Part shown: positions 32,373 to 54,643 of the stretch, piece by piece | Layout of the letters: every line of letters starts with the position of its first letter | How positions within the stretch are numbered: position 1 is the stretch's first letter | Assembly (NCBI RefSeq): GCF_025950085.1 | Contig: NZ_JAPDDS010000004.1 | Span: 310,001 to 374,000 of the forward strand | DNA: 64,000 nucleotides | Source: Luteolibacter flavescens | Lineage (GTDB): Bacteria; Verrucomicrobiota; Verrucomicrobiia; Verrucomicrobiales; Akkermansiaceae | Reading direction: 5' to 3' | Notes under the pieces: generated by a model | What the model was told of the DNA's origin: nothing | Database searches by the model: none | What the model saw: only the letters and a program-made list of their open reading frames with translations | Position numbers and translations under genes: made by a program

Positions 32373-32376
32373 GACC

Positions 32377-32477: not shown

Positions 32478-32512
32478 TTTTCCCTGAATTTCAATCCAAG
32501 CCTGGCACTGCC

Positions 32513-34274: not shown

Positions 34275-35996
34275 ATGGGCCGCGCGGCATATCGCCGGGG
34301 CTTGCAAGGCTCCCCATCCATGCCCGTGCCCGCCTCTTCTTCATCCCTCCGCCTCGCCCCGCGATTCCTCGGTGCCGGATGGCTGTGGCTCGGTGCCGCC
34401 ACCCTGCCCGCCGCGGCACAGGATTCACCGGCAGCGGCATCTAACAGCTCTCCCGGCCCTGCCGCGGAAGCCGCCCCGGTCCCGCGGCCGATGTATATCC
34501 GCCAGTACCGCGTGCGCGGGTCGAAGACCCTGAGCGCCGCCGAGGTCCAGAGCGCGGTGTATCCCTACCTCGGCCCGGGACGCCTGCCATCGGACGTCGA
34601 TCAGGCACGTGCGGCGCTGGAAAAGGCGTATCACGAAAAGGGCTACAAGGCCGTCTCCGTCTTCATCCCCGAGCAGCGCATCCGCCAGGGCATCGTCACC
34701 CTGCAGGTGGAGGAAAATCCCGTCGGCCGCCTGCGCGTGCGCGGTGCCCAATTCACCTCGCCCTCCGCTCTCACCCGCCAGGCACCCTCGATGCAGGAGG
34801 GCAAGCCGCTCGATTTCACGCGCCTCACCGACGAGGTGATGGCGATGAACCAGCTACCCGGCCGCACCGTTACTCCCTCGCTGAAGCCCGGCGTGGTCCC
34901 CGGCACCGTGGACGTGGACCTGGAGGTGAAGGACGAGCTGCCCGCCCACGGCAGCCTCGAGCTGAACAATCGCTACAGCGCGGACACCTCCGAGCTCCGC
35001 CTGAATGGCTCGCTGTCCTACGACAATCTCTGGCAGCTCGGCCACTCCGCGGGCCTCAGCTTCCAGATCGCGCCCGAGGACATCGATGACGCGCGCGTCT
35101 TCACCGGCTACTACATGGCGCGCATGCTGGATCACCCCGACTGGGCGATCATGCTGCAGGGCACGAAGCAGGATAGCGACGTGGCCACGCTCGGCGGTGC
35201 GAATTCGCTCGGCCGCGGCGAGATCATCGGCCTCCGCGCGATCAAGACGCTGCCGCCCGCGAAGAATCTCTACCACTCGCTCAGCGTCGGCTTCGACTAC
35301 AAGAACTACGATGACGAGACGGTCATCGCCGGTGTCTCGCTGCCAGCGCCCATCACCTACTACCCCTTCAGCGCGCTCTACACCGCGTCCATCCAGGGCG
35401 GCGCGGCGACGAAGGACAAGGTGGACCGCATCGACATCAATGCCGGTCTCACCTGGGGCTTCCGCGGGCTGGGCGACTCGGCCTACGACTACGCGACGAA
35501 GCGCTACCAGGCGACCGGCGGCTTCATCTACTTCCGCGGCGACATCTCGAAGACGCGCGACCTGACGAACGGCTACCAGTGGTTCGCCAAGATCCAGGGC
35601 CAGGCGTCGAACGAGCCGCTGGTGAATGCCGAGCAATTCTCCGCGGGCGGTCTCGGCACCGTGCGCGGCTACCTGGAGTCCGAGGTGGTGGGGGACAATG
35701 CGATCTTCGGCACCTTCGAATTCCGCAGCCCGTCCCTGCTCCCCGAGAGCTGGAAATACGGCGATGAGGATGACCTCCGCGTCTATGCCTTCATCGAGGG
35801 CGGCGTGACCAGCATCCACGAGGCGCTGCCCGGCCAGGACAGCGGCGAGCAGCTCGGCAGTGTCGGCATCGGCACGCGCGGGAGATTGTTCGACCACCTC
35901 AACGGATCCTTGGATGCCGCCTATCCCATCTTCGACCGACCTGCCGGCCGCGAGCAGGACGTGATGTACACCTTCCGCCTGTGGGGCGATTTCTAA
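34275..35996 (+). CDS. Two-partner secretion transporter, ShlB/FhaC/HecB type (TpsB)
   Basis: The protein has 573 residues from ATG 34275; ATG 34320 (MPVPASSSS) is an alternative start, and both give a signal peptide ending in LPAAAQ. Residues about 72-150 are a POTRA domain (IRQYRVRGSKTLSAAEVQSA, LEKAYHEKGYKAVSVFIPEQ, GIVTLQVEE); a second POTRA follows to about 225 (GRLRVRGAQF, DVDLEVKDELP). The rest is the 16-strand Omp85-type barrel with GGLGTVRGYLESEV, the VRGY-like motif of loop L6 typical of FhaC, and a terminal FRLWGDF. It exports its TpsA partner, presumably the 3733-residue exoprotein in the same cluster, from periplasm to surface. It opens a nine-gene collinear unit. Confidence 0.92.
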   Translation: MGRAAYRRGLQGSPSMPVPASSSSLRLAPRFLGAGWLWLGAATLPAAAQDSPAAASNSSPGPAAEAAPVPRPMYIRQYRVRGSKTLSAAEVQSAVYPYLGPGRLPSDVDQARAALEKAYHEKGYKAVSVFIPEQRIRQGIVTLQVEENPVGRLRVRGAQFTSPSALTRQAPSMQEGKPLDFTRLTDEVMAMNQLPGRTVTPSLKPGVVPGTVDVDLEVKDELPAHGSLELNNRYSADTSELRLNGSLSYDNLWQLGHSAGLSFQIAPEDIDDARVFTGYYMARMLDHPDWAIMLQGTKQDSDVATLGGANSLGRGEIIGLRAIKTLPPAKNLYHSLSVGFDYKNYDDETVIAGVSLPAPITYYPFSALYTASIQGGAATKDKVDRIDINAGLTWGFRGLGDSAYDYATKRYQATGGFIYFRGDISKTRDLTNGYQWFAKIQGQASNEPLVNAEQFSAGGLGTVRGYLESEVVGDNAIFGTFEFRSPSLLPESWKYGDEDDLRVYAFIEGGVTSIHEALPGQDSGEQLGSVGIGTRGRLFDHLNGSLDAAYPIFDRPAGREQDVMYTFRLWGDF

Positions 35997-36047
35997 CAGA
36001 CGCTCCCGCCCGCTCCTTCTTCTCTCCGACACGCCCGCATCTCCTCC

Positions 36048-37901
36048 ATGACCCTCCGTCTTCTCTCCATCCCCTTCCTGCTCGCCGCAGCCCCGCTTCT
36101 CGCCGCTGAAGAAGGCGGCGGCTCCTGGTGGAATCCCGCGTGGACGCAGCGCCAGAAGATCACCATCGACGCCGCCTCGGACACGAAGCTGCCCGATGCC
36201 ACCGGTGCTGCGAATATCCTGCTGCGCCTGCACGAGGGGAATTTCCAATTCACCGCCGCAGCCGAGGGCGGTGCGGACATGCGCTTCGTCTCCGAGGACG
36301 GCGCGACCGTGTATCCGCACCAGGTGGAGAAGTATGACTCGCTGATGAACGAGGCATTCGTCTGGGTGAAGCTCCCCGAGGTCTCCCCCGGCAGCCAGAC
36401 GGTCGCGAATCTCTACTACGGGAATGCCGCGCCGGATGCCGCCGCCGCATCCACCGAGACCTACGACGCCGACACCGCCGCGATCTATCACTTCGCCGAG
36501 GCTTCCGGCAATCCCGCCGACTCTACCTCGAACGAGAACAATGCCACCACCCCCGGCATGGCCGCGGAGGGCTCGCTCGTCGGCAATGGCCTCCGCCTGC
36601 TCGGCAGCGGCGAGCCGGTGAGCATCCCCGCCAGCCCCTCGCTCGCATGGTCGGAAGGCCAGGCCGCCACGGTCTCGCTGTGGGTGAATCCCTCCGCGCT
36701 GGCCGCGAATGCCGTGATCCTCTCGCGCAGCGAGGGTGGCAAGTCCTTCCGCCTGGTGCTCGACCAGGGCATCCCGGTCGTCGAGATCGGCGGCACGCGC
36801 AGCACGCCCGGTGCGCCTCTCACCGAGAAGACGTGGTCGCACCTCGCGATCGTCAGCGCTGCCGGCCAGGTGAAGCTCTACGTGAATGGAGCGGAGTATT
36901 CGCTCGCGCAGGTCGCGCTGCCCGCGCTGAACAGCCCGCTCGCCATTGGTGGTGCCGCCAGCTTCCAGGGCGAGATCGATGAACTCCGCTTCGACAAGGT
37001 CGCGCGCACTGCGGGCTGGATCAAGCTGGCTGCCGTATCCCAAGGCACGTCGGATGCCGCCCAGCGTCTCGTGGCCATCGGCCAGTCGGAGACGGGTGAA
37101 GGCGGTGCCGGTGAGGAAGGCCACGGCGGCGCGCTGGAGCACGTGATGCTCTTCGGCGACATCGCGAAGAACATGATGTTCGACGGCTGGATCGCCATCG
37201 GCGTCTGCGTGCTCATGATTATCGCGGGCTGGACGGTCGCCATCAAGAAGTTCGCCTACCTGAACTCCATCGACAAGGGCACGAAGGAATTCATGCGCCT
37301 GTGGAAGACCCTTTCCTCCGACCTCACCGCGCTCGACCACTCCTGCAATACCAGCGTGAAGAGCTTGGGCGGCAAGGCCGACCCGACCACCGAGGCGCTC
37401 ATCCGCAAGTCGCCGCTTTACGAGATCTACCAGATCGGCTCCACCGAGATCCGCCATCGCCTCGAGCAGGACCGCGCGCACCGGAAGGGCCTCACCGGCC
37501 GCTCCATCCAGGCGATCCGCGCCAGCCTCGACGGCGGCCTCGTCCACGAGACGCACCGTCTCACCAGTGGCCTCGTTTACCTCACCATGAGCATCGCGGG
37601 CGGCCCGTATGTCGGCCTGCTCGGCACCGTGGTCGGCGTGATGATCACCTTCGCCATCATCGCGAAGAGCGGCGAGGTGAACGTGAACTCCATCGCGCCC
37701 GGCATCGCCTCCGCTCTGCTCGCCACCGTGGTCGGCCTCATCGTCGCGATCCCCGCGCTTTTCATCTACAGCTACCTGAACAGCCGCATCAAGAACGCCA
37801 TCGCGGTGATGCAGGTCTTCATCGACGAGTTCGTCGCGAAGATGGCCGAGTTCTACCAGGGCTCGGACAATTCCGGCCCGGTGTCGAAGGTCATCGAGTA
37901 A
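36048..37901 (+). CDS. exbB: ExbB/TolQ-type proton channel with N-terminal DUF2341 and LamG-like periplasmic domains
   Basis: The protein has 617 residues with signal peptide MTLRLLSIPFLLAAAPLLA. Residues about 25-135 (WWNPAWTQRQKITIDA, EAFVWVKLPEVSPGSQTVANLYYGN) match DUF2341. About 140-330 form a concanavalin/LamG sandwich (AIYHFAEASGNPADST, ATVSLWVNPSA, FQGEIDELRFDKVART). From about 375 follows a MotA/TolQ/ExbB channel with three membrane helices; the signature region GGPYVGLLGTVVGVMITF and SALLATVVGLIVAIPALFIY is intact. With ExbD it should couple proton flow to TonB. A lectin-like outer part on ExbB is unusual and may sense or bind glycan or the exoprotein. It lies 51 bp after tpsB. Confidence 0.92.
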   Translation: MTLRLLSIPFLLAAAPLLAAEEGGGSWWNPAWTQRQKITIDAASDTKLPDATGAANILLRLHEGNFQFTAAAEGGADMRFVSEDGATVYPHQVEKYDSLMNEAFVWVKLPEVSPGSQTVANLYYGNAAPDAAAASTETYDADTAAIYHFAEASGNPADSTSNENNATTPGMAAEGSLVGNGLRLLGSGEPVSIPASPSLAWSEGQAATVSLWVNPSALAANAVILSRSEGGKSFRLVLDQGIPVVEIGGTRSTPGAPLTEKTWSHLAIVSAAGQVKLYVNGAEYSLAQVALPALNSPLAIGGAASFQGEIDELRFDKVARTAGWIKLAAVSQGTSDAAQRLVAIGQSETGEGGAGEEGHGGALEHVMLFGDIAKNMMFDGWIAIGVCVLMIIAGWTVAIKKFAYLNSIDKGTKEFMRLWKTLSSDLTALDHSCNTSVKSLGGKADPTTEALIRKSPLYEIYQIGSTEIRHRLEQDRAHRKGLTGRSIQAIRASLDGGLVHETHRLTSGLVYLTMSIAGGPYVGLLGTVVGVMITFAIIAKSGEVNVNSIAPGIASALLATVVGLIVAIPALFIYSYLNSRIKNAIAVMQVFIDEFVAKMAEFYQGSDNSGPVSKVIE

Positions 37902-37929
37902 TCCCTAACAACACCTCGAACGTCACGCC

Positions 37930-38337
37930 ATGGCCTCTGCCGACGACAAGAGCTACGATGACATCAACGTCACGCCGATGGTGGACCTCTACCTCGTGCT
38001 GCTGCTCATCTTCATCATCATGACCACTGCCGGCGTGCAGGGGGTGAAGGTGGACCTGCCGCGCGCGAGCAAGGCCGCCGCGCCGAAGATGGACGGCCCG
38101 AAGATGCAGGCCATCACCATCGACAACCAGGGGAAGATCCGCCTGAACACCACGCCCATCTCCTCGCTCGCCGAGCTGGAGAGCAAGCTGAGCGCGGTGA
38201 AGGCCTCCGCCCCGGACACCCCGGTCGTCGTACGCGGTGACCGCGGTTCGCAGTACCAGGGCGTGATGGACGTGCTCGACGTGCTCGGGCGCGTGGGCAT
38301 CACGAAGATCGGCCTCGCCACCGAGCCGTCGAAGTAA
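37930..38337 (+). CDS. exbD: ExbD/TolR family biopolymer transport protein
   Basis: The protein has 135 residues. The single membrane helix carries the catalytic Asp in NVTPMVDLYLVLLLIFII (about residues 14-31), the protonatable residue of ExbD/TolR. The periplasmic domain has VKVDLPRAS, ITIDNQGKIRLN and VVVRGDRGSQYQGVMDVLDVLGRVGI, typical of the family. It forms the stator with the ExbB encoded 28 bp upstream and drives the TonB-like protein encoded 23 bp downstream. Normal length. Confidence 0.95.
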   Translation: MASADDKSYDDINVTPMVDLYLVLLLIFIIMTTAGVQGVKVDLPRASKAAAPKMDGPKMQAITIDNQGKIRLNTTPISSLAELESKLSAVKASAPDTPVVVRGDRGSQYQGVMDVLDVLGRVGITKIGLATEPSK

Positions 38338-38360
38338 TCCTCACCCGACTCACCGCCGCC

Positions 38361-39032
38361 ATGGCCTCTTTCACCAGGATCACCACCGGCACCGCAGGCC
38401 TCTGCCTGGCTGCGGTCGCGCTCGCACTCACCTCGTGCGGGAAGAAGGAGGAGCCGAAGAAGAAGGCCCCCTCCGTCGTCATCGTCGATATCCCGCCGCC
38501 ACCTCCTCCACCACCCCCGCCGCCGCCACCGAAGCAGGAGCCGCCGCCGGAGGAACAGCCGAAGGAGGAGGAAATGATCGCCCAGGAGGAGATCCAGGAG
38601 GAGGCACCCGCCGAGCCCGATGCTCCTGCCGATGAACCCGCACCGCTCGGCACCGGCATCGCCGGCGACGGCCCGCCCGATGGCTTCGGCCTGAGTGGCA
38701 AGGGCGGCGGCGGTGGCACCGGCACGGGTGGTGGCCGCCGCGGCATCCCCGCCGGGAAATACGACGGCGCTGCCCGCATGGTCATCCGCTCGCTGACCGC
38801 CGAACTCCAGCGGAACGCGAAGACGCGCTCCGCCACCTTCAACGGCCGCGTCGCTGTCTGGGTGGACTCCACCGGTCGCGTCACCCGCGTGAAGCTCACC
38901 GGCTCCTCCGGCAGCTCCGCCGCGGACGATGCGATCCGGAATGACCTCATCGGCTTCCAGTTCTCCGAGCCTCTCCCGTCCGACATGCCCATGCCGATCC
39001 ACATGCGGCTCTCCGGCCGCAAGGCGAACTGA
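38361..39032 (+). CDS. TonB-like energy transducer with a lipobox-like N-terminus
   Basis: The protein has 223 residues. The N-terminus has one hydrophobic helix (GLCLAAVALALTSC) and a lipobox-like L-T-S-C at residue 26, then KKEEPKKKAPS. A 13-residue Pro run, a Pro/Glu-rich stretch (about 43-85) and a Gly-rich hinge follow, the rigid periplasm-spanning arm seen in TonB. The C-terminal about 85 residues (VIRSLTAELQRNAKTRS, GRVAVWVDSTGRVTRVKLTGSSG, MPIHMRLSGR) fit a TonB C-terminal fold. It should transmit ExbBD energy to an outer-membrane partner. If the cysteine is lipidated, this TonB would be held by lipid and not by a helix that contacts ExbD, which would be unusual; reading it as a plain membrane anchor is equally possible. 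Confidence 0.8.
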   Translation: MASFTRITTGTAGLCLAAVALALTSCGKKEEPKKKAPSVVIVDIPPPPPPPPPPPPPKQEPPPEEQPKEEEMIAQEEIQEEAPAEPDAPADEPAPLGTGIAGDGPPDGFGLSGKGGGGGTGTGGGRRGIPAGKYDGAARMVIRSLTAELQRNAKTRSATFNGRVAVWVDSTGRVTRVKLTGSSGSSAADDAIRNDLIGFQFSEPLPSDMPMPIHMRLSGRKAN

Positions 39033-39081
39033 CCCCATCCGCCCGTCCCCTCCCGACAAGACCGACCTCTCTCTCATCCCA

Positions 39082-40935
39082 ATGCTCCGCCACGACTCAC
39101 ACGTCCGTCTCTCCACGTTGCTTGCGCTCCTCTCGCTGCAGGCCGGACTGCTGCACGCCCAGGAAGCCGACCCCGCCGCGCTGCCTGATGAACCCGGCAC
39201 CGACCTGCCCGCGCTGACCGAGCCGGATGCAAACGCCCCGGCGACCGATGCCGCCACCGGCCCCGCCGCGATGATGGCCGGAGGCTCCGTCTCGCAAAAC
39301 GTCACCATCAATCTCATCAGCCGCCTCGTGAAGCGCGGCATGCTCACGCAGGAGGATGCGAATGACCTCATCGCCATGGCCGAGGCGGATGCCCAGGCCG
39401 CGCGCCTCCGCGACGAGTCCATGCGGGTTGCTATCGCCGACGCCGCCGCGCCTCCGTTGGAAGAGGGCGACGTGGGCGTCAGCTACGTGCCGGAGCCGGT
39501 GCGCCAGCAGATGCAGGCCGAGATCAAGGCCCAGCTCACGGCCGAGGCCCGCGAGCAGGAGTGGTCCGCGAAGAATCCGAAGCCGGAGTGGAAGGAACAG
39601 TGGGAGATCTTCGGCGACCTCCGCACCCGCTACGAGGGAACCTTCTTCGGCGATGGCAATGACAACACGGGTGCCTTCCCGAATTTCAACGCGATCAACA
39701 CGGGCTCGCCTTTCGATGTCGCGGGCACGCAGTTCTCGCCGCAGCTCAATGTGGACGAGGATCGCCAGCGCTTCCGCTTCCGCTTCCGTGCAGGCGCGGG
39801 CTTCGATCTCGAGGACGGCTTCAGCGGTGGCTTCCGCGTGGCCACCGGCGACAGCAACTCGCCCGTCTCGACGAACCAGTCCTTCGGCACCTCGGGCGGC
39901 AATTTCTCGAAGTACCAGCTCTGGCTCGACCGCGCCTTCCTCTCCTACAACTTCGGCAAGCAGCTCGATGCCGACGTGAACATCGACATCGGCCGCTTCG
40001 AGAATCCCTTCTTCGCCTCCGAGGTGATGTGGGACGACGACATCGGTCTGGACGGCATCGCGCTGCGCGGCTCGCACCAGGTGGCGGACGGCGTGAAGGT
40101 CTTCGGTGCCGGTGGTGCCTTCCCGATCTTCAATACGGACTTCCATTTCGCGTCGAACCAGCCCGCGAAATTCGAGAGCACGGACAAGTATCTCTTCGCC
40201 GGCCAGATCGGCGTGGACCTCAAGATCAAGGACGACCTGAATGCGAAGTTCAGCGTCGCCTACTATGACTTTAGTGGAGCCGAGGGCGAGTTCTCCTCGC
40301 CCTACACGCCGCTCACTTCCTCCGACGCGGGCAGCAGCGATGCGACGCGCCCGTCCTTCGCTCAGAAGGGCAATACCTACATGCCGCTGCGCGTCATCAT
40401 CCCGGATGCGAGCAATGGCTTCGGCACCACGAACCAGTGGCAGTACTTCGGCCTCGCGACGCCCTTCAAGAACGTGACCTTCACCGGCCGCCTGGACTAC
40501 GACGGCTACGAGCCCGTCCGCCTCTCGGCCGTGGGCGAGGTCATCAAGAACGTGGCCTTCGATGAAAACCGCCTCGCGCTCTACGGCGTGAACAACCGCG
40601 GCCCGGCCGGTGCTGGCGGTGGCAGCGGTGCCTTCGAGGGCGGCGACATGGCATGGTTCCTGAATCTCATCGCGGGCAGTCCGTCCTTCGACAAGCGCGG
40701 CGACTGGAATACCTTCATCGGCTACCGCCATGTGGAATCCGACGCGGTCATCGACGGCTTCACCGACTCCGACTTCGGCGGCGGTGGCACGAACATGAAG
40801 GGCTTCACCATCGGCGGGAATTACGCGCTCTCGCCCTCCGTCCGCGTCGGCGCCCGCTGGATGAGCGCCGGGGAAATCGCCGGACCCACGCTGAAGAGCG
40901 ACGTCCTCCAGTTCGACATCAACGCCAAATTCTAA
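39082..40935 (+). CDS. Putative outer-membrane porin (Porin_5-like) with coiled N-terminal region
   Basis: The protein has 617 residues from ATG 39082; the frame extends upstream into the TonB gene. A signal peptide (about 1-27, LLALLSLQAGLLHAQ) is followed by an acidic linker, then NLISRLVKRGMLTQEDANDLIAMAEADAQAARL, a helical periplasmic segment often found at the start of this porin family, and from about residue 185 a barrel with strands such as FGDLRTRYEGTFFGDG, RFRFRFRAGAGFDLEDG and FSKYQLWLDRAFLSYNFG, ending DVLQFDINAKF. This resembles the putative-porin family (PF16930). It has no TonB box or plug domain, so it is not a classical TonB-dependent receptor. Substrate unknown; phosphate or phosphoester uptake is a hypothesis from the upstream Pho-like sites. 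Confidence 0.82.
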   Translation: MLRHDSHVRLSTLLALLSLQAGLLHAQEADPAALPDEPGTDLPALTEPDANAPATDAATGPAAMMAGGSVSQNVTINLISRLVKRGMLTQEDANDLIAMAEADAQAARLRDESMRVAIADAAAPPLEEGDVGVSYVPEPVRQQMQAEIKAQLTAEAREQEWSAKNPKPEWKEQWEIFGDLRTRYEGTFFGDGNDNTGAFPNFNAINTGSPFDVAGTQFSPQLNVDEDRQRFRFRFRAGAGFDLEDGFSGGFRVATGDSNSPVSTNQSFGTSGGNFSKYQLWLDRAFLSYNFGKQLDADVNIDIGRFENPFFASEVMWDDDIGLDGIALRGSHQVADGVKVFGAGGAFPIFNTDFHFASNQPAKFESTDKYLFAGQIGVDLKIKDDLNAKFSVAYYDFSGAEGEFSSPYTPLTSSDAGSSDATRPSFAQKGNTYMPLRVIIPDASNGFGTTNQWQYFGLATPFKNVTFTGRLDYDGYEPVRLSAVGEVIKNVAFDENRLALYGVNNRGPAGAGGGSGAFEGGDMAWFLNLIAGSPSFDKRGDWNTFIGYRHVESDAVIDGFTDSDFGGGGTNMKGFTIGGNYALSPSVRVGARWMSAGEIAGPTLKSDVLQFDINAKF

Positions 40936-40936
40936 C

Positions 40937-41602: not shown

Positions 41603-41642
41603 TCCCGTCACGGCATCCCGACTATCACCGTTTCATCTTTTC

Positions 41643-42527: not shown

Positions 42528-42559
42528 CCCGTTTCCGAGTTCTCTTTTCCCCGTCCGTC

Positions 42560-45500: not shown

Positions 45501-48500
45501 ATTCCCCGGTAGGCACGCTGCAGGGCGGTCGTCTCCAGCTCGGTGCCACGCTGAAGGGCTACTCCGGCGCGAAGGCGGGCTCGCTCACGCTGAATGCCTC
45601 GGCATTCCAGGTCGGCGGGACTTCCACGACTCCGGGCGTGATCGTCCTCCAGCCGGACTTCTTCAATCAGGGCGGCTTCGGCAGCTTCTCGCTCACCGGC
45701 CTCAGCATGCCGGATGGCGCGGGCGGATCCATCCCCGGGCTCTCCATCGCGGAGGGCACCGTGATCGCGCCGGTGGTACAGGGCCTCATCGCCAGCAGCC
45801 CGGACTCGCCGGTCTTCTCGCTTTCCACCGTGCTCCAGGAGGAGGGCGTGCGCACTCCGGTGAGCCTCACCTTCGGCGCGAAGGGCGTCTCCGCCGCTCC
45901 CGTGGGTCTCATCTCCCGCGGCGGCGTGGTGATGGGCGAGGGCGCGGTGATCCGCACGGATGCGCAGGGCACCGTGGTCTTCAATGGCCAGACCGTCGCC
46001 ATCCACGGCACCGTCGAGGCACCGGCGGGCAGCATCACCATCAATGGCGCGAACAGCCTGCCGTCGAACAGCGTGCCGACCAGCGCCGCGGCCACCACGC
46101 TCATCGGCTCCACCGCGCGTCTCTCCACCGCTGGCACCACCGTCCTCACCTCAAATCCCCTCGGCCTCCGCCAGGGCAAGGTGCTCGGTGGCGGCAGCAT
46201 CACCGTCACCGGCAATATCATCGCGGAAACCGGTGCCGTGCTCGATGTCTCCGGCACCAGCGGCGTGCTGGATCTCCCGCCCGGCTACCTTTCCCTCTCC
46301 CGCGCCGAGCAGCGCGCAGCCCGCGGTCGCGACTACGTCCCGGTGACTCGCGAGACGAATGGCGGCAGCATCACTCTCTCCGGGGCACAGATGCTCTACT
46401 CGGATGCTACGCTCGTCGCGAATGCAGGCGGCAAGTCGGCCACCGGCGGCTCGCTCACCGTTTCCTCCGGCCGCTTCATCACGCCCGGACAGGCATATAC
46501 CAGCGCGGACACGAATCTCATCGTCACGCAGACCGGCCCGAATCTTCCTGCGGGAAACCCCGGCATCGGCGAGACACTGCGCGATGCCGATGGCAATGTG
46601 ATCGCGGGCATCGGCAATTTCGCGGTTGACCGCTTCGCCGCGGGTGGCTTCGACTCGCTCACGCTGAATGGCAATGTCCGCTTCGAGGGCGACGTGACCA
46701 TCCAGACGCCGGGCCGCCTGCGCGTGGCCAGCGGTGGCGTCATCACTGCTACGGGGAATGTAGTACTGGATGCCTCGCACGTCGCGCTCGGCCAGGCCTT
46801 CCGCCCGCCCGCCGCGGCAGGCGAGGTGATCACCCGCTTCACCAGCACGGATACCAGCGGCACCACCACCCCCTACGCCTTCGCCCCGGTCCATGGCACG
46901 GGCGATCTCACGGTGAAGGCACAGCTCATCGATGTGGGAGATCTTTCCCTCCAGAGCATCGGCCACGCCGACTTCATCGCCACGAAGGGCGACATCCGCG
47001 GGAATGGCACGCTCAGCGCCGCGGGCGACCTCACCTTCGAGGCCGGGCAGATCTACCCGACCACCGGCTCCGCCTTCAATATCTTCGCCTACGATCACGC
47101 GGGCGGGAAGGGCTCCGTGACCATCCGCAAGGGCGAGCAGCGCGCTCTGCCATACTCGGCCGGCGGCACGCTCTCCATCCACGCGTCCACCATCGTGCAG
47201 GGCGGCACCCTGCGCGCGCCCATCGGCACCATCAATCTCGGCTGGGATGGCACGGGCACCGCGCCGGTGAATCCCATCGCGGGCACCACCGTGGCGGCCC
47301 CGGTCACCACGCACGTCACGCTTTCCTCCGGCAGCGTCACCTCCGTCTCCGCCATCGACCCGGTCACGGGCAAGGGCGTGATCCTCCCGTATGGCCTCAG
47401 CCTCGACGGCAACTCGTGGATCGATCTCGCGGGGAACAACATCACCGTCGGTGGCGTGCCGTCGAAGGAGATCAATCTCGCGGGCCTCGACGTCACCAGC
47501 GAGGCGGGCTCCGTCATCGACATGAGGGGCGGCGGCAATCTCTACGCCTACCGCTGGATCTCCGGCAACGGTGGCCGCAAGGACGTGCTCGACAATTCCG
47601 GTGCCTTCGCCGTGATCCCCGGCTACGGCTTCGACTACGCGCCGTATGCCGCCAATAGCAGCACCTCCACGGTGGGCGGCGATCCCGGCTATGTGAATGC
47701 CGGCCTGCGCGTGGGTGACCAGATCACGCTCGGTGCATCCTCCGGCCTGCCCGCAGGCACCTACACGCTGCTGCCTGCACGCTACGCGCTTCTTCCCGGT
47801 GCCTTCCTCGTCACTCCCGGCAGCGGCACGCCCGCGGGCACGGTGAAGCGCCCCGACGGCTCGGCCATCGTCTCCGGTTACCGGGCGAACAACCTCGACC
47901 CGTCCCGCACCGGCGCGACCGTCATCTCGAATTTCGAGGTGGCCTCCGCGAAGGTCGTCCGCGCGCGCTCGGAGTATCAGGATCTCTACGCGAATACGAC
48001 ACTGCGCGAGGCCGCGATCGCCCGCGAGTTCGCCGTGCCGCGCCTGCCCGTGGATGCGGGCTACCTTTCCTTCACCGCCACCACCGGCATGAGATTGGGA
48101 GGCACCGTCACCTCCACCGCGCCGCAGGGCGGACGTGGCGGCGTGGTCGATATCAATAGCCCTGTGGACATCTTCATCAATGCCACCGGCACCGGCGGCC
48201 CCGAGGGCAGCCTCACGCTCAGCTCCACGTTGCTGAATAGCTTCGGCGCGGAGAGCATCCTCATCGGCGGCATCCGCACCTTTGGCACGGACGGCGCCAC
48301 CGTCAGCGTCGGCACGGGGAATCTGACCGTGGACAATGCCGGGTCTGCACTCACCGGCAGCGATATCATCCTCGTCGCGAAGAACGACCTGACGCTGAAG
48401 GACGGCTCGCTCGTCACCAGCACCGGCTCGGTGAATACCGACGATCTCATCCTCGGCAATGCCGCCGTGGCAGGCAGCGGGGATGGCACGCTGGTCCGCG

Positions 48501-51500
48501 TGAGCGGTGACACCACCACCGGTCTCACGCGCCGCGGTGTCACCTCCGCCACGAATGCCCGCCTGCAGGTGGGCGCGGGCTCCATCCTCACCGGCGGCAG
48601 CATCACGCTCGACTCCACCTACGCCACCTCCTTCGACGGCACCGCGCGCCTGAATGGCACCTCGGTCTCGCTGAACAGCGGCCGCATCAGCCTGCTGCTC
48701 GACGGAGCAGGCACGCTCGACCCCGCGAACTACGGCCTGGTGCTTTCCGGCCAGGCGCTCGCGGCGCTCCAGTCCACGGCGAAGAGCTTGTCGATGACGA
48801 GCTACTCATCGCTCGATGTCTATGGCACCGGCACGGTCGGCTCGCGCGCCTTTGAGCAGCTCTCGCTGCAGGCGTCGTCGATCCGCGGCTTCAATCAGAA
48901 TGGCGGCACCGCCACCTTCACCGCGTCCCACCTCATCCTCGGGAATGCGGGCGACCGCGCGGCAGGTGCGGCACCGGCGGGGCCGCTTGGCGGCACGCTC
49001 GCCTTCGACGCGAGGCAGATCACGCTCGGTGCGAATGACCTGCGCGTGGACAGCTTCGCGAATGTGAGCCTCGCAGCGGATGAACGGCTCGTCGTTTCCG
49101 GCGAGGGGTCCTTCCGCACCGCGGGCGATCTCCAGGTCCGCACCCCGCTCGTCACCGGCCTGAAGGCGGCGAACCATCTCATCGGCTCTGCCGGTCACCT
49201 CAGCGTCACTCGCCCGCCCGGCTCCTCCGCAGGTGCGAATGGCGGGCTCGGCGCGAAGCTGACGCTGGAAGGCGGCACGCTCGACGTGGCCAGCAATATC
49301 ACCCTCTCCAGCGGCGAGCTCACGCTGCGCTCCACGGCGGGCAATGTGAACGTCGGCAATGCCCGAATCGACGTGGGCGGCACCGTGACGCGTTTCGTGG
49401 ATGTCACGCGCTACACCGGCGGCGGCACCGTGAACCTCGAGTCGAAGGGCGGCTCGGTCATCGTCGGCCAGCCCGCCGTCATCTCCGTGGCCGCGGTTTC
49501 CGGCGGTGGAAATGCAGGCACGCTGAATGTGAGCGCCGCCGATGGCAGCCTCGTGCTCGATGGCACCATCGATGCCTCCGCAGGCAGCACCGGGCTGAAG
49601 GGCCGCTTCACGCTGGATGCCGGCTCACTCCCGGGAGAGAGCCTCGCTACTCTCGACGCGACCTTGAACAAGGGCGGCTTCACCCGCTCCCGCGACTACC
49701 GCTTCCGCAACGGCGACGTGCTCATCGACGGCCTCGCCACCTCCGGCACCTATCGCGTCGCGACGGACAACGGATCGATCACCGTCACCGCGGCTGGAGA
49801 GATCGACGCCTCGGGCAAGACCGGCGGTACCATCGACCTGAAGGCGCACCGCAGCCTCATCCTCGAGGATGGAGCTTCGCTCAGCGTCGCCGCGCGCGAA
49901 TTTGACTCCGCTGGCAAGGGCGGCTCCATCGTCCTGGAAGCCGGTGCGCATCGGAATGGCGTGATCGACACCACGGCACTGCTCGACCTCCGGACGGGTG
50001 CCGTGCTCGACCTTGGCGTGGCCGCGCAGACCGCGGACAGCGCGAAGCAGGGGAAATATGCCGGAACGCTCCACCTGCGTGCGCCGCGCAATGCCGCGAA
50101 CACGGACCTCCAGGTCGCGGCCATCGGCAGCACGATCAACGGGGCCTCCAGCATCCTCGTGGAGGGTTACAAGGTATACGATCTCACCGGCACGCCGAAT
50201 GGCACCATCACCTCCGGCGTGCAGGGCCAGATCCTCGCCGACGGGAATGCCTTCCTCGGCAGCACCGGCAATACCGGCGCGAACTACACCGCCATGATGA
50301 ACCGCCTGACCGGCGGGAATGCGGCGCTCGACCTGATCCTCGCTCCGGGTGCCGAGATCATCAACCGCACCGGCAATCTCACGCTCGGCAGCACGGGTTC
50401 CACCGCGAGCGAGGACTGGAATCTCTCCACCTTCCGCTTCGGGCCGCGCGGTGCGGCCGGCGTGCTCACGCTGCGCGCGGCGGGCGACCTGAAATTCCAC
50501 AATGCGCTCAGCGACGGCTTCTCCGGGGGCACCAGCCTCTGGCTCTCGCCGCTGAATGCCTACAATGCCGCGCTGCCGGCGAATTCGCAGACCTGGTCCT
50601 ACCGCCTCACCGCGGGTGCGGATTTCTCGGCAGCGAGCTTCCGCGAGGCCATTGACGGCACGGGCTCGCTCGACCTTGGCAAGGCCATCGGGTCCGCCTC
50701 TGCCACCGGTGGCAGCAACGCGACCACCGCGTCCATCATCGGAAATGCCTTCCAGGTCATCCGGACCGGCTCCGGGAACATCGACATCACCACCGGTGAT
50801 GCGGTCCGCCTGCTGAATCCCTTCGCGTCGATCTACACGGCGGGCACACGTCTCGCGAATGCGAACTCGATCTTCGCCGAGAGCGACTTCGTCACGCCTA
50901 TCCTCACGGGGAACAACAGCAACGGCAGCCTGGGCGCGACCCAGCAGACCTACGCCGCCTCCTACAGCATGGCGGGTGGCAATGTCACCATCACCGCGGG
51001 CGGGAACATCGAGCGGAAGACGAACAACAACTCCGGCCTCATCGACGACTCGTCACGCCAGCTCCCGAACAACTGGCTCTACCGCCGCGGCCTCGTGGGT
51101 GCGGACGGCACGTATGGATCCGTCCGCGTCTCAACCGGACTCGGCGGTGCGACCGACGCCGCTGCCTCCACCACCTGGTGGGTGGACTTCAGCAATTTCT
51201 TCCAGAGTGTCGGCGCGCTCGGTGGTGGCAATGTCACCATGACCGCGGGCAACGACATCACCAACGTGGATGCCGTGATCCCGACGAATGCCCGCACGCC
51301 GCGCGGTACGCCTGATGCCACGAAGCTCGTGGAGCTGGGCGGCGGCGATCTCACCGTGACCGCCGGTGGCGACATCAGCGGCGGCGTTTACTACGTCGAG
51401 CGCGGCCGCGGCATCCTGGATGCCGGTGGCAGCATCACGACGAATGCCACGCGCTCGCTCTCGCTCGGCCTGCTGGGGAATCTGAACAACCCGGCGGCGG

Positions 51501-53761
51501 CGCGGCTTTCCGATCTCGCCTGGATGCCCACCACGCTCTTCCTGGGCAAGGGAAGCTTCGACATCACCGCCCGCGGCGATGTGCTCCTCGGCCCGGTGGC
51601 AAATCCCTTCCTGCTGCCGCAGGGGATGAACAACCGCTTCTGGTACAAGACACACTTCAGCACCTACGCCGCGGACAGCAGCGTGACGGCGCTCTCGCTC
51701 GGCGGTGACGTGGACTGGCGCTCCTCCGTGGCGCTCACGCGGGATGGCGATACGTCCTTCCTCCGCGCGTGGACGGAGACCCAGCAGATGCTCGGCGGCT
51801 CGGGCAGCGCGGCGAATTTCCAGCCATGGTTGCGCGTCGTGGAAACCAGCGCGGTGCCGTATGACTCGGTCTTCTCGCTCGCCGCGCCGACGCTCTCGCT
51901 GACCGCGCTTTCCGGCGATGTGAATCTCGGTGGCAGCATCACGCTCTCGCCCGCATCCCGCGGCCAGCTTGAGATCGTGGCAAGCGGTGCGGTGAATGCG
52001 CTGCAGGCGCTGGGCCGCTCGTCTCAGGCGGGCTTTGAGCAGCGGGTGTGGAGTACCGCGAGGATCAATGTCTCGGATGCCGATCCCTCGGCCATCGCCT
52101 CGGCGATCCGTCCGCTCGGTCGCCCGACACCCAGCAACGCGACGAACGCCACCTCGCTGGATGCGATCAATGCGCTCTTCAATGAGTCCGGTTCCTACAC
52201 CGGCATCTACGGCGTCACGCAGACGAAGCAGGCGCTGCACACCGCCGGCCTGTTGCACGCGGGGGATGCCGAGCCCGTCCGCATTTACGCGGGCGGCGGG
52301 GATATTTCCGGCCTCACGCTTTTCAGCCCGAAGGCGACGCGCGTCGTCGCGGCGAATGACATCACCGACGTCTCCTTCTATATCCAGAATCTGCGCGGGT
52401 CGGACGTGAGCCTCGTCTCCGCAGGCCGCGACATCATCGCCTACAATGCGAGCTCGCCCTTCCGCGTGGAGGCCACCACGGGCAGCAATACGATGGTGAG
52501 CAATACCACGCCGCTCGCCGGGGACATCCAGATCGCCGGTCCCGGCACGCTGGAGGTGCTGGCAGGGCGGAATCTCGACCTTGGCATCGGGCCCGGCAAT
52601 GCCGACGGCACTGGCGCGGGCGTCACCAGCATCGGCAACCTGCGGAATCCCTACCTGACGAATGACGGTGCGGACCTCGTCCTCGGCGCTGGCATTGGTG
52701 CCGCTGTGGGCTTGGCCGAGAGCGACCTGAATTTCGCGAATTTCATCACGACCTACGTGAAGGGCCCGAAGGGCGCGGACTACCTGAAGGAAGTCGCGCC
52801 GGGCGTGAACTTCGACGAGCAGCCGCCGGAAGAGCAGGCACGCATCGCGCTGGAGGTCTTCTACCTCGTGATGCGCGATACCGGCCGTGACTTCAACAAT
52901 CCGGAGAGCGAGGGGTATCGCAACTACGACTCCGGCATGGCGGCGATCAAGGCGCTCTTCGGCGAGGAAGCCGGTGCGTGGGATGGCGACATCCTCGCCC
53001 GTGCCCGCGACATCCGCACCCGCAGCGGCGGCAGCATCAGCATCTTCGCTCCGGGCGGCGGGCTCTCGCTGTCGAATACGACCATCGGCAATCCGCTCGC
53101 GCCTCCGGGCGTGGTCACGGAGTCCGGCGGGGATATCTCCATCTTCACCCACGAGAGCGTGGACATCGGCATCGGCCGTATCTTCACCCTGCGCGGTGGC
53201 AATGCGGTGATCTGGTCCACCACGGGCGACATCGCCGCGGGCTCCTCCTCGCGCACCGTTCAGGCGGCCCCGCCGACGCGCGTGATCGTGGATCCGCAGA
53301 GCGCCTCCGTGCAGACGGACCTCGCCGGTCTCGCGACCGGTGGTGGCATCGGCGTGCTCGCCACGGTGGCAGGCGTGGAGCCCGGCGACGTGGACCTCAT
53401 CGCTCCCGCCGGCATCATCGACGCCGGTGACGCGGGCATCCGCGTGAGTGGCAATATCAACCTCGCAGCCGTGACGGTGGTGAATGCCGGCAACATCTCC
53501 GCCGGTGGCAATACCGCCGGTGCCCCGGCTGCCCCGTCCGCACCGAGCATCTCCGCCACGACCAACGCTTCCAACAACGCCGCCGCCGCCTCCCAAGGTG
53601 CCGAGGCGAAGCCCGCCGACCGCACTGAAGAGACGCCGGTGGAGGAAGTGGAGTCTCCCTCCGTCATCACCGTGGAAGTCCTCGGCTACGGCGGAGGCAG
53701 CGGGGATGAGGAAGAAGACGAGGAGGACGACGAAGAAGGCGAAGAGGAAGAAGGCGCCTGA
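42560..53761 (+). CDS. Giant FhaB-type exoprotein (TpsA), 3733 residues
   Basis: The long signal peptide with a basic start ends at about residue 36 (LLATPAMAG). A Gly/Pro-rich stretch leads to the TPS secretion domain (about 140-390), with QQALLNWQTFNVGKNTTLTF, INDPLANPTQILGKI and the signature NRNGIVFGGSSQVNVRGL (227-244). Residues about 400-2800 are repetitive parallel beta-helix units rich in Gly, Thr, Ser and Asn, with recurring GGSI/V and LDGTI-type turns. From about 2830 to 3650 (NNWLYRRGLVGADGTYGS, GGDLTVTAGGDISGGVYYVERG, FSPKATRVVAANDITDVSFY) it resembles DUF3739, the C-terminal region of large FHA-family proteins. The end is Ala/Ser-rich and then strongly acidic (about 15 Glu/Asp). 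Secreted through the TpsB encoded upstream; adhesin, matrix or enzyme-anchor roles are possible. Confidence 0.95.
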   Translation: MSPVRHPRLLRRTSQAAGTALLLLGEIGLLATPAMAGDILRGGRAGGGAPQGAANPVGTTPPPIVPSGGTTRDSLARTAMAIQSVQAMQLAARNLANNGGNHANTNPNGTGAILPDVPDGLTPGGLQVDPRVTGPGSPHWTGANLPVQTTTSGGTAQVTVKQTAQQALLNWQTFNVGKNTTLTFDQSAGGANVGQWTAFNFINDPLANPTQILGKIEAPGQVYIMNRNGIVFGGSSQVNVRGLTVSSLPINTNLIANGLLNNPDSQFLFSGLAIPAGANGTPAFTPEAPHPDLGRYGDVVVEAGAILNSPTDAAKVGGRITLVGPNVTNRGSILTPDGQAILAAGMQVGFAAHDTNDPSLRGLDVFIGQASGYAGTATNDGLIEAMRGSIVMAGRAIAQNGALTSTTSVALNGRIDLLAHYNAVANTAYNPTNTTTGRPFIYQDSGTVSLGEGSLISILPELTSKDTTVGTQLALRSQVNIAGRSVYLGEDSLMYAPNAKVSIQAGEWVRFGTNPQPSFVQSTGQVYLDKNAQIDVSGTDGVEVGVAQNILSIQLRGAELANSPLQREGPLRNATVNVDIRDAGVFQSEMWVGTPLADISGFANLIQRGVGQLTVAGGSVDIGAGGSFVMQSGSGIDVSGGSTIFKGGVVKTTRLVTADGSLVDIADARPDETYLGIYDGLTAEVNRKWSVSNLYKNPLGPSGERYEADSVQGGAGGSISIAAPSMALDGKFTGETVNGAYQRDTPAQAAKLSLSFTSQDKSYASLPLHAPTPPTVTFQSGVTQTAVAAFQVDAAGNAAPLSAERQENVYLSPELLAGDGFGSLTVYNPDGDIVVPENVSLVAPALGSISLTGTNVTVDGSIIAPGGSITFKSSNFTLDMLNQIAGGNVLPAPLADRGVFTLGEKAVISTAGMIVDDRPTTAGSPQGTRAVDGGSVSIDAYSTTLSTGGLIDVSGGAIMSERGRVTYGDGGSITVADGSDDSPVGTLQGGRLQLGATLKGYSGAKAGSLTLNASAFQVGGTSTTPGVIVLQPDFFNQGGFGSFSLTGLSMPDGAGGSIPGLSIAEGTVIAPVVQGLIASSPDSPVFSLSTVLQEEGVRTPVSLTFGAKGVSAAPVGLISRGGVVMGEGAVIRTDAQGTVVFNGQTVAIHGTVEAPAGSITINGANSLPSNSVPTSAAATTLIGSTARLSTAGTTVLTSNPLGLRQGKVLGGGSITVTGNIIAETGAVLDVSGTSGVLDLPPGYLSLSRAEQRAARGRDYVPVTRETNGGSITLSGAQMLYSDATLVANAGGKSATGGSLTVSSGRFITPGQAYTSADTNLIVTQTGPNLPAGNPGIGETLRDADGNVIAGIGNFAVDRFAAGGFDSLTLNGNVRFEGDVTIQTPGRLRVASGGVITATGNVVLDASHVALGQAFRPPAAAGEVITRFTSTDTSGTTTPYAFAPVHGTGDLTVKAQLIDVGDLSLQSIGHADFIATKGDIRGNGTLSAAGDLTFEAGQIYPTTGSAFNIFAYDHAGGKGSVTIRKGEQRALPYSAGGTLSIHASTIVQGGTLRAPIGTINLGWDGTGTAPVNPIAGTTVAAPVTTHVTLSSGSVTSVSAIDPVTGKGVILPYGLSLDGNSWIDLAGNNITVGGVPSKEINLAGLDVTSEAGSVIDMRGGGNLYAYRWISGNGGRKDVLDNSGAFAVIPGYGFDYAPYAANSSTSTVGGDPGYVNAGLRVGDQITLGASSGLPAGTYTLLPARYALLPGAFLVTPGSGTPAGTVKRPDGSAIVSGYRANNLDPSRTGATVISNFEVASAKVVRARSEYQDLYANTTLREAAIAREFAVPRLPVDAGYLSFTATTGMRLGGTVTSTAPQGGRGGVVDINSPVDIFINATGTGGPEGSLTLSSTLLNSFGAESILIGGIRTFGTDGATVSVGTGNLTVDNAGSALTGSDIILVAKNDLTLKDGSLVTSTGSVNTDDLILGNAAVAGSGDGTLVRVSGDTTTGLTRRGVTSATNARLQVGAGSILTGGSITLDSTYATSFDGTARLNGTSVSLNSGRISLLLDGAGTLDPANYGLVLSGQALAALQSTAKSLSMTSYSSLDVYGTGTVGSRAFEQLSLQASSIRGFNQNGGTATFTASHLILGNAGDRAAGAAPAGPLGGTLAFDARQITLGANDLRVDSFANVSLAADERLVVSGEGSFRTAGDLQVRTPLVTGLKAANHLIGSAGHLSVTRPPGSSAGANGGLGAKLTLEGGTLDVASNITLSSGELTLRSTAGNVNVGNARIDVGGTVTRFVDVTRYTGGGTVNLESKGGSVIVGQPAVISVAAVSGGGNAGTLNVSAADGSLVLDGTIDASAGSTGLKGRFTLDAGSLPGESLATLDATLNKGGFTRSRDYRFRNGDVLIDGLATSGTYRVATDNGSITVTAAGEIDASGKTGGTIDLKAHRSLILEDGASLSVAAREFDSAGKGGSIVLEAGAHRNGVIDTTALLDLRTGAVLDLGVAAQTADSAKQGKYAGTLHLRAPRNAANTDLQVAAIGSTINGASSILVEGYKVYDLTGTPNGTITSGVQGQILADGNAFLGSTGNTGANYTAMMNRLTGGNAALDLILAPGAEIINRTGNLTLGSTGSTASEDWNLSTFRFGPRGAAGVLTLRAAGDLKFHNALSDGFSGGTSLWLSPLNAYNAALPANSQTWSYRLTAGADFSAASFREAIDGTGSLDLGKAIGSASATGGSNATTASIIGNAFQVIRTGSGNIDITTGDAVRLLNPFASIYTAGTRLANANSIFAESDFVTPILTGNNSNGSLGATQQTYAASYSMAGGNVTITAGGNIERKTNNNSGLIDDSSRQLPNNWLYRRGLVGADGTYGSVRVSTGLGGATDAAASTTWWVDFSNFFQSVGALGGGNVTMTAGNDITNVDAVIPTNARTPRGTPDATKLVELGGGDLTVTAGGDISGGVYYVERGRGILDAGGSITTNATRSLSLGLLGNLNNPAAARLSDLAWMPTTLFLGKGSFDITARGDVLLGPVANPFLLPQGMNNRFWYKTHFSTYAADSSVTALSLGGDVDWRSSVALTRDGDTSFLRAWTETQQMLGGSGSAANFQPWLRVVETSAVPYDSVFSLAAPTLSLTALSGDVNLGGSITLSPASRGQLEIVASGAVNALQALGRSSQAGFEQRVWSTARINVSDADPSAIASAIRPLGRPTPSNATNATSLDAINALFNESGSYTGIYGVTQTKQALHTAGLLHAGDAEPVRIYAGGGDISGLTLFSPKATRVVAANDITDVSFYIQNLRGSDVSLVSAGRDIIAYNASSPFRVEATTGSNTMVSNTTPLAGDIQIAGPGTLEVLAGRNLDLGIGPGNADGTGAGVTSIGNLRNPYLTNDGADLVLGAGIGAAVGLAESDLNFANFITTYVKGPKGADYLKEVAPGVNFDEQPPEEQARIALEVFYLVMRDTGRDFNNPESEGYRNYDSGMAAIKALFGEEAGAWDGDILARARDIRTRSGGSISIFAPGGGLSLSNTTIGNPLAPPGVVTESGGDISIFTHESVDIGIGRIFTLRGGNAVIWSTTGDIAAGSSSRTVQAAPPTRVIVDPQSASVQTDLAGLATGGGIGVLATVAGVEPGDVDLIAPAGIIDAGDAGIRVSGNINLAAVTVVNAGNISAGGNTAGAPAAPSAPSISATTNASNNAAAASQGAEAKPADRTEETPVEEVESPSVITVEVLGYGGGSGDEEEDEEDDEEGEEEEGA

Positions 53762-53794
53762 TGCTCGTCTCCTGATTTCCATCAAGGGATAGTC

Positions 53795-54643
53795 ATGAAA
53801 TCACCGCTCCTCGCGCTTCTCTTCGCCGCCTTGATTCCGGTCGCTCCGGTGCAAGCCGCCGGTGAGGATGCGGCCGCGCTTTATCGCCAGGGGCGCGATC
53901 TCTTCCACGGGAAGGGTGTGGCGAAGGATCCCGTGAAAGCACGCGAGATCCTCGGCCAGTCGTCGGATCTCGGCGACGTGAATGCGAAGACGCTGCTCTC
54001 CTTCATGATGGCGCAGGGCATCGGCGGTGAGAAAGATGCTGCGGCGGCTTTCAAACTCGTCCTGTCCGCTGCCGGGACGGGAAATGCGGATGCGTGCGTC
54101 AATGCGGGCGCGATGCTCCAGTCGGGGCTCGGCACGAAGAAGGATGCCGCGGCGGCGCTCGGCTGGTTCGAGAAAGCTGCCGCTGCAGGATCCGTCTCGG
54201 GAAGCTTGAAGCTCGGCGAGATCCATTACTTCGGCGACGATGGCGTGCCGCAGGATTACGCGAAGGCGCTGCCGCCGCTCACCGTGGCGGCGGAGGGAGG
54301 CGATGCCCGGGCCCGCACGATCCTCGGCTCCATGCATGAATTTGGCCAAGGCGTGGCTACCGATCGCAAGGCCGCGCTGAAGTGGTATGAAGCCGCGGCC
54401 CGTCAAGGCGATGCCAGGGCCCAGGCAAATCTGGGCCGCCTGCTCAGTGGTGGGAATCCAGAGGAGCAGGACCGCATCGCCGCCTACGCGTGGCTGAAGC
54501 TTGCCGCGCTGAAAGGCGAGGCCATGGGCAGCATCACGCTGGCGAATGTCGCCGCCGGATTGGACGATGCGCAGAAGCAGGAGGCCGAAAAGCGCTATGC
54601 TGAATTGCTGCGCGAGACGAATCCCCCTCGCCTCGGGAAGTGA
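53795..54643 (+). CDS. Periplasmic Sel1-repeat protein
   Basis: The protein has 282 residues with signal peptide MKSPLLALLFAALIPVAPVQA. Six or seven 36-residue Sel1/TPR-like repeats follow, for example ALYRQGRDLFHGKGVAKDPVK, GSLKLGEIHYFGDDGVPQDYAK and RTILGSMHEFGQGVATDRKA, which pack as a solenoid for protein binding. It lies 33 bp after the exoprotein stop in the same direction, as the last gene of the secretion cluster. Sel1 proteins often act as adaptors in the periplasm; here it may stabilise or regulate exoprotein export. The end (LRETNPPRLGK) is short and basic. It may instead be an independent housekeeping adaptor. Confidence 0.9.
   Translation: MKSPLLALLFAALIPVAPVQAAGEDAAALYRQGRDLFHGKGVAKDPVKAREILGQSSDLGDVNAKTLLSFMMAQGIGGEKDAAAAFKLVLSAAGTGNADACVNAGAMLQSGLGTKKDAAAALGWFEKAAAAGSVSGSLKLGEIHYFGDDGVPQDYAKALPPLTVAAEGGDARARTILGSMHEFGQGVATDRKAALKWYEAAARQGDARAQANLGRLLSGGNPEEQDRIAAYAWLKLAALKGEAMGSITLANVAAGLDDAQKQEAEKRYAELLRETNPPRLGK

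What the first reader, a model, noticed from the sequence alone, without database searches (positions are those of the whole stretch)
34275..54643. Self-contained two-partner secretion cluster with its own ExbB-ExbD-TonB, porin, coiled-coil protein, foldase and Sel1 protein
Nine collinear genes with gaps of 1 to 51 bp read TpsB, ExbB, ExbD, TonB-like, porin, coiled coil, parvulin, TpsA (3733 aa) and Sel1. Standard two-partner systems need only TpsA and TpsB and no energy input, because TpsB exports an unfolded partner without TonB. Here an ExbBD-TonB set is embedded, and the porin between them has no TonB box, so the energy may be used on TpsB, on the porin or on the exoprotein itself. From memory, Pseudomonas aeruginosa has a related arrangement (PdtA/PdtB beside exbB2-exbD2-tonB4); this should be verified. 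A verrucomicrobial version with a dedicated foldase, coiled coil and Sel1 adaptor appears undescribed.
Basis: partly seen in the sequence, partly recalled or inferred. Interest (0 to 1): 0.78.

Follow-up and report, generated by a model that had tools for sequence, protein, structure and literature searches.

The report
TonB-linked two-partner secretion operon
A nine-gene operon pairs a giant surface protein and its outer-membrane exporter with a private proton-powered motor (ExbB-ExbD-TonB); the same set is found from Verrucomicrobiota to Pseudomonas-type bacteria, and a conserved tail motif on the giant protein suggests, untested, that the motor grips the exported protein itself.

Summary
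In detail: TpsB, DUF2341-LamG-ExbB, ExbD, TonB-like, Porin_5, coiled coil, PpiC, 3733-aa TpsA (TPS + DUF3739) and Sel1 are collinear. It is a verrucomicrobial relative of the P. aeruginosa Pdt/PUMA3 locus (pdtB-exbB2-exbD2-tonB4-PA0696..PA0699), so the gene set is not verrucomicrobial; its TonB part is still called uncharacterised. Coupling is subfamily-specific: in 289 Verrucomicrobiota genomes, 9/9 DUF3739 loci with upstream sequence carry ExbB-ExbD-TonB-porin-coiled coil, against 0/32 other TPS loci for TonB or porin. Full-length DUF2341-ExbB was found only in DUF3739 genomes. PpiC (6/9) and Sel1 (3/11) are optional. New lead: after the DUF3739 solenoid every TpsA has a predicted-disordered tail holding one conserved island, PSIITVEVLGYGG: strict in 80/87 verrucomicrobial tails, recognisable in the other 7, present in 9/9 proteobacterial tails, absent from 22 control TpsAs and 17,400 shuffles. 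It resembles TonB boxes of this genome's own receptors (EMTVEA, PLTVVG). No such box was seen in TpsB or the porin. Best reading: TonB docks on the periplasmic tail of TpsA and works on the exoprotein itself. The operon unit is near certain; tail docking is about 50%, inferred, no binding tested.

The parts
34275..35996 (+). TpsB outer-membrane transporter (POTRA_2 + ShlB barrel)
   Evidence: Pfam; nearest solved relative CdiB 6wim, 9.7e-14
36048..37901 (+). ExbB with N-terminal periplasmic DUF2341-LamG module
   Evidence: Pfam; full-length form found only in DUF3739-TpsA genomes
37930..38337 (+). ExbD
   Evidence: PF02472 3.1e-27
38361..39032 (+). TonB-like energy transducer: hydrophobic anchor ending in a lipobox-like LTSC, Pro-rich and Gly-rich linkers, TonB/TolA-type C-terminal domain (38760-39029)
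39082..40935 (+). Porin_5 outer-membrane protein (mechanical ORF starts 38929; likely start 39082)
   Evidence: PF16930 9.7e-185; no TonB-box-like island in its N-terminus
40937..41602 (+). Periplasmic coiled-coil protein (position of P. aeruginosa PA0697)
   Evidence: in 9/9 verrucomicrobial loci and in the proteobacterial operons read
41643..42527 (+). PpiC parvulin-type foldase (position of PA0699); optional
   Evidence: PF00639; 6 of 9 loci
42560..53761 (+). TpsA exoprotein, 3733 aa
   Evidence: PF05860 + PF12545
43010..43339 (+). TPS secretion domain of TpsA
   Evidence: residues 151-260
53195..53527 (+). DUF3739, C-terminal cap of the solenoid
   Evidence: confident beta model
53528..53758 (+). 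Predicted-disordered C-terminal tail of TpsA
   Evidence: pLDDT 31-45 after the solenoid
53657..53695 (+). Conserved tail motif PSVITVEVLGYGG (TpsA residues 3700-3712), candidate C-terminal TonB box
53795..54643 (+). Sel1-repeat protein, optional neighbour
   Evidence: PF08238; adjacent in 3 of 11 DUF3739 loci

Best explanation
This is a Pdt-type two-partner secretion operon with its own proton-powered motor. Shown by sequence: TpsB and a DUF3739-type TpsA are tied to a DUF2341-ExbB, ExbD, a TonB with a TolA/TonB-type C-terminal domain, a Porin_5 protein and a periplasmic coiled coil, across Verrucomicrobiota and Pseudomonadota; and each TpsA of this family ends in a flexible tail with one conserved beta-prone motif. 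[quoted passage not shown] ExbBD then uses the proton gradient to pull on or reposition the surface-tethered exoprotein, controlling its final extension, anchoring or release. The coiled coil and PpiC would keep the 3700-residue chain export-competent. In Pseudomonadota the same motif could also be read by the VreA-type STN-TonB_C protein in front of the tpsA genes, reporting exoprotein status to the sigma factor.
For: Two-way association: DUF3739 in 9/289 genomes; full-length DUF2341-ExbB only in those genomes; operon order 9/9. 49/49 further DUF3739 genomes have this ExbB, and for 33 of 50 TpsA loci it sits 14-16.6 kb upstream on the same strand. Control TPS loci: 0/32 with TonB or porin, 2/32 with generic ExbB/ExbD. 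Same gene set on Klebsiella, Methylosinus, Cupriavidus and Aquabacterium plasmids. In P. aeruginosa one promoter transcribes phdA, pdtB, exbB2D2, tonB4 and PA0696-PA0701 (PMC4971064). Tail motif: 80/87 strict, the other 7 recognisable; 9/9 Pseudomonadota; 0/22 complete control TpsAs; 0/17,400 shuffles; flanks unconserved; tail modelled as disordered. The genome's 16 TonB-dependent receptors have boxes of the form [EP]-[LM]-[VT]-V-x-[AGS]. TonB domain verified. VreA-type C-terminal domains are homologous to this TonB domain (hhalign 99.5%, 5.9e-23). Periplasmic retention of a TpsA C-end is known for FhaB (PMC8263021) and ExbBD-TonB-dependent protein secretion for PopC/Oar (PMC6434023).
Against: No binding or export datum exists for this operon. 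TonB boxes are short and degenerate, so resemblance to ITVEV is weak by itself, and known boxes lie near N-termini. The motif could equally bind another co-conserved component (coiled coil, POTRA domains, LamG module). The conserved part (PS..GYGG) is longer than a usual TonB box. Type V export needs no external energy in vitro (PMC5422565). A P. aeruginosa tonB4 insertion did not change VreI-induced zebrafish killing (PMC2729926), and VreA is not needed for VreI activation (PMC7035377). This window's TonB has a lipobox-like LTSC that, if cleaved, would remove the membrane anchor that contacts ExbBD.
Confidence: 0.52

Rival explanations
1. The TonB set energises the Porin_5 protein (gated uptake), and TpsA/TpsB are only co-regulated surface genes.
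For: The porin lies directly after tonB in nearly all loci read and is co-conserved. The closest ExbB motor relatives (69-78% identical) sit beside TonB-dependent receptors in sister genomes.
Against: The porin has no plug domain and its conserved N-terminus is a helix-like NLI.LLV..GVLT.E.A segment, not a box. It would not explain the specificity for DUF3739 TpsAs or the tail motif.
Confidence: 0.18
2. TonB acts on TpsB, for example on the POTRA domains or to unplug the barrel, to drive translocation.
For: tpsB is directly upstream of exbB in nearly all loci read; TonB-dependent protein secretion has a precedent (PopC/Oar).
Against: The stretch between signal peptide and first POTRA strand is unconserved in TpsB; conservation starts with the POTRA itself. 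TpsBs of other families work without TonB.
Confidence: 0.15
3. The tail motif binds the coiled-coil protein, PpiC or the ExbB LamG module as a chaperone or retention signal; TonB has another job.
For: The coiled coil is present wherever the TonB is; a short C-terminal motif could be a chaperone or protease tag, as the FhaB extreme C-terminus regulates processing.
Against: The motif is beta-prone and box-like, and the operon's one domain of a family known to bind such strands is the TonB C-terminal domain. PpiC is absent in 3 of 9 loci that keep the motif.
Confidence: 0.15

Closest known systems
P. aeruginosa Pdt/PUMA3 locus: pdtA, phdA, pdtB-exbB2-exbD2-tonB4-PA0696-PA0697-PA0698-PA0699 (PMC2729926, PMC7035377, PMC4971064)
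   Same: TpsB-ExbB-ExbD-TonB-porin-then-PpiC order; one transcript there; PA0697 sits at the coiled-coil position
   Different: No VreA-type sensor here (no STN domain found in the whole genome); no YbjN; tpsA is the downstream gene of the same operon; Sel1 follows. PdtA sequence itself not read.
Klebsiella quasipneumoniae plasmid pKqq_SB98_1 and Methylosinus sp. C49 plasmid pMSC49a operons
   Same: TpsB-ExbB-ExbD-TonB-porin-coiled coil-PpiC/YbjN and a DUF3739 TpsA with the tail motif; Methylosinus has tpsA last, as here
   Different: STN, sigma factor and FecR genes in front; YbjN present; Klebsiella tail has a second element
Bordetella FhaB/FhaC
   Same: TPS domain, POTRA-barrel transporter; C-terminal part kept in the periplasm (PMC8263021)
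   Different: No linked ExbBD-TonB, no DUF3739 tail motif (from established knowledge, not tested here)
Myxococcus PopC/Oar secretion (PMC6434023)
   Same: Protein export depending on ExbB/ExbD/TonB
   Different: Exporter there is a TonB-dependent transporter with its own TonB box, not a TpsB

Membership tests
Two-partner secretion (type Vb) | TpsA with N-terminal TPS domain | tested here: met
   PF05860 57.2 bits, cut-off 33.5
Two-partner secretion (type Vb) | Cognate TpsB with POTRA and barrel domains, genetically linked | tested here: met
   ShlB 65.7 bits, POTRA_2 51.3 bits; CdiB 6wim nearest
Two-partner secretion (type Vb) | Export without external energy | not testable with these tools
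   needs export assay
Pdt/PUMA3-type TPS locus | TpsB-ExbB-ExbD-TonB-porin gene order | tested here: met
   window order against published order
Pdt/PUMA3-type TPS locus | DUF3739-type TpsA with tail motif | tested here: inconclusive
   present in window and 9 proteobacterial TpsAs; whether PdtA itself has it could not be read
Pdt/PUMA3-type TPS locus | VreA-VreI-VreR type regulators | tested here: not met
   no STN domain found anywhere in the own genome; so filed as a relative that lacks the regulatory half, not as PUMA3
TonB energy transducer | TonB C-terminal domain fold | tested here: met
TonB energy transducer | Uncleaved N-terminal transmembrane anchor | tested here: inconclusive
   homologues G252, G179 and G255 show a plain anchor without lipobox; window LTSC and second copy ASSC look like a lipobox
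TonB-dependent client (TonB box) | Conserved box-like motif in a flexible periplasmic segment | tested here: inconclusive
   conserved motif and predicted disorder shown; periplasmic location is inferred from FhaB
TonB-dependent client (TonB box) | Physical binding to TonB | not testable with these tools
   no complex modelling or binding assay available

The most novel reading that the evidence does not exclude
A widespread class of two-partner secretion is TonB-powered: the exported giant protein carries a TonB box at its own C-terminus, kept in the periplasm, so the inner-membrane proton motor pulls directly on a surface-exposed fibre; in Pseudomonadota the same tail is also read by a TonB-domain sensor (VreA type).
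Probability: 0.45. Interest if true: 0.83.

Novelty: new variant of a known kind. Interest (0 to 1): 0.64.

Why it matters
How type V systems drive large proteins across the outer membrane without energy is a standing question. Here is a TPS family, in several bacterial classes, that keeps a private proton motor and an exoprotein tail with a box-like motif. If the motor acts on the tail, TPS is not always energy-free, TonB has a client that is itself an exported protein, and the uncharacterised exbB2-exbD2-tonB4 genes and the unexplained TonB-like half of VreA in P. aeruginosa get one testable explanation. The 13-residue motif makes the question a peptide-binding assay.

Tried and rejected
Chance or one-off gene arrangement: rejected by recurrence. 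General TPS-ExbBD linkage: rejected by 32 control loci. PpiC and Sel1 as core parts: rejected, patchy. TonB box in TpsB or porin: none found. VreA-type sensor in this genome: none found. Promoter/terminator scan: one promoter-like site (0.9 expected) and four terminator-like sites (4.7 expected), all on the opposite strand, so no internal signal but no positive evidence either. A wider proteobacterial genome survey could not be centred, so proteobacterial data come from plasmids only. No phage record matched. No held paper mentions DUF3739, and none of the five held papers naming both Verrucomicrobia and two-partner secretion is about such a system by title and abstract.

Full report
WHAT IS THERE. 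Two corrections: the porin start is probably ATG 39082, not 38929, and the TonB-like protein is only a sub-threshold Pfam match (TonB_2 0.0012). I therefore tested the TonB call separately. A 13-member profile of its C-terminal domain hits PDB TonB chains (5e-4). A model made without an alignment gives helix-strand-strand-helix-strand with pLDDT mostly 67-89 over residues 131-220, and its top 21 structural matches are TolA, TonB, HasB and FusB C-terminal domains (best Z 8.1 over 88 residues at 2.8 A).

IT IS A UNIT. DUF3739-type TpsAs occur in 9 of 289 Verrucomicrobiota genomes, 11 copies, with a second copy in the window's own genome. In all 9 copies with upstream DNA on the contig (window included) the order is TpsB-ExbB-ExbD-TonB-porin-coiled coil-(PpiC)-TpsA. 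Full-length DUF2341-LamG-ExbB is found in DUF3739 genomes only. Three extra hits are motor-domain-only ExbBs (69-78% identical), two in G252 and G179, which also have the operon, and one in G269, which does not; in the two of these loci scanned with Pfam (G252, G269) they sit beside Plug-domain TonB-dependent receptors, and G179 has the same layout. In 49 further genomes reached through named DUF3739 loci (a few of them the same organisms as in the 289), 49/49 carry a strong ExbB match, and for 33 of 50 loci its position is 14-16.6 kb upstream on the same strand, as in the window (contig identity inferred from coordinates). As control I took 32 TPS-domain loci without DUF3739 from the same genome set: 24 have a TpsB, none has TonB or porin, 2 have generic ExbB/ExbD. 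9/9 against 0/32 for TonB gives Fisher p = 2.9e-9 (phylogenetic dependence not corrected). PpiC is in 6 of 9, Sel1 adjacent in 3 of 11: both optional.

KNOWN RELATIVE. P. aeruginosa has pdtA, phdA, pdtB, exbB2, exbD2, tonB4, PA0696 (putative porin), PA0697, PA0698 (YbjN), PA0699 (PpiC) (PMC2729926, PMC7035377), and one promoter there transcribes phdA, pdtB, exbB2D2, tonB4 and PA0696-PA0701 (PMC4971064). The 2020 paper calls exbB2-exbD2-tonB4 a still uncharacterised putative TonB system. The same operon is on plasmids of Klebsiella, Methylosinus (same order as the window, tpsA last), Cupriavidus and Aquabacterium. In most of the proteobacterial loci read, the DUF3739 tpsA is preceded by an STN or TonB-C protein, a sigma factor and a FecR-type gene. 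In this genome no STN domain was found at all, so the regulatory half is missing.

THE TAIL MOTIF. The DUF3739 cap is a confident beta structure; the last ~78 residues are predicted disordered (pLDDT 31-45). Inside that unconserved tail is one island, P-S-[IVL]-I-[TS]-V-E-V-[LI]-G-Y-G-G. By a fixed pattern it is present in 80 of 87 verrucomicrobial tails, the other 7 being recognisable variants such as PSIYSVEVIGYGG; in 9 of 9 proteobacterial tails (ISVEILGYG, FTVRVLGFG, ITVEVLGYG); in 0 of 22 complete control TpsAs; and in 0 of 17,400 shuffled tails. The pattern was written after seeing the sequences, the proteobacterial ones included, so the counts describe conservation, not an independent prediction. 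The own genome's 16 TonB-dependent receptors carry N-terminal boxes of the form [EP][LM][VT]Vx[AGS], for example EMTVEA and PLTVVG (boxes picked by eye), which the ITVEV core resembles. No comparable island exists before the TpsB POTRA or at the porin N-terminus.

A SECOND READER IN PROTEOBACTERIA. The C-terminal domains of the STN proteins are homologous to this operon's TonB domain (hhalign 99.5%, 5.9e-23). Llamas et al. 2009 had described VreA as STN plus TolA/TonB-like and speculated that the latter contacts an outer-membrane partner. A shared ligand, the TpsA tail, would explain both. Against it: VreA is dispensable for VreI activation in P. aeruginosa (PMC7035377).

MECHANISM. Shown: gene coupling, TonB fold, conserved tail motif. 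Established for other systems: TpsB exports N-end first; the FhaB prodomain stays periplasmic (PMC8263021); ExbBD-TonB can be needed for protein secretion (PopC/Oar, PMC6434023). Inferred: the tail stays inside, TonB docks on it, force is applied to the exoprotein. Whether this drives late export, holds the fibre, or triggers release cannot be told from sequence.

LIMITS. Proteobacterial sampling is plasmid-only; PdtA was not read; no complex could be modelled; literature search covers open-licence papers only.

Noticed in passing
window 38361-38440; G000:C16 second copy: TonB-like proteins of this genome have a lipobox-like Cys at the end of the hydrophobic segment (LTSC, ASSC), while three homologues checked (G252, G179, G255) have a plain membrane anchor; a lipoprotein TonB would be odd.
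   Followed up: partly
L106, L107, L108, L110, L111 (TpsA C-termini): Proteobacterial DUF3739 TpsAs carry a second tail element (VQVLGAG...L...ER..L) after the first motif; not seen in the verrucomicrobial tails or in Methylosinus C49.
   Followed up: partly
L164, L165, L166: Sister genomes have ExbB-ExbD-TonB-TPR clusters beside ~1150-1190-aa receptor-like proteins (CarboxypepD_reg + Plug in the two scanned) whose ExbB motor domain is 69-78% identical to the window's.
   Followed up: partly
G000:C16:45873-46659, L147:21649-22465: Some operons carry two exbD genes in tandem.
   Followed up: no
window 60603-60845: FecR-domain protein (493-aa frame, - strand) about 6 kb downstream of the operon, one of seven in the genome.
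   Followed up: no
window 30969-33907: Two sulfatase-like genes, each with an apparent signal peptide, directly upstream of tpsB; not recognised upstream of tpsB in the other loci.
   Followed up: no
G216:C30 and G216:C75: Both contigs start in the same TPS-domain sequence, so this genome probably has two TpsAs with near-identical 5' ends that broke the assembly.
   Followed up: no
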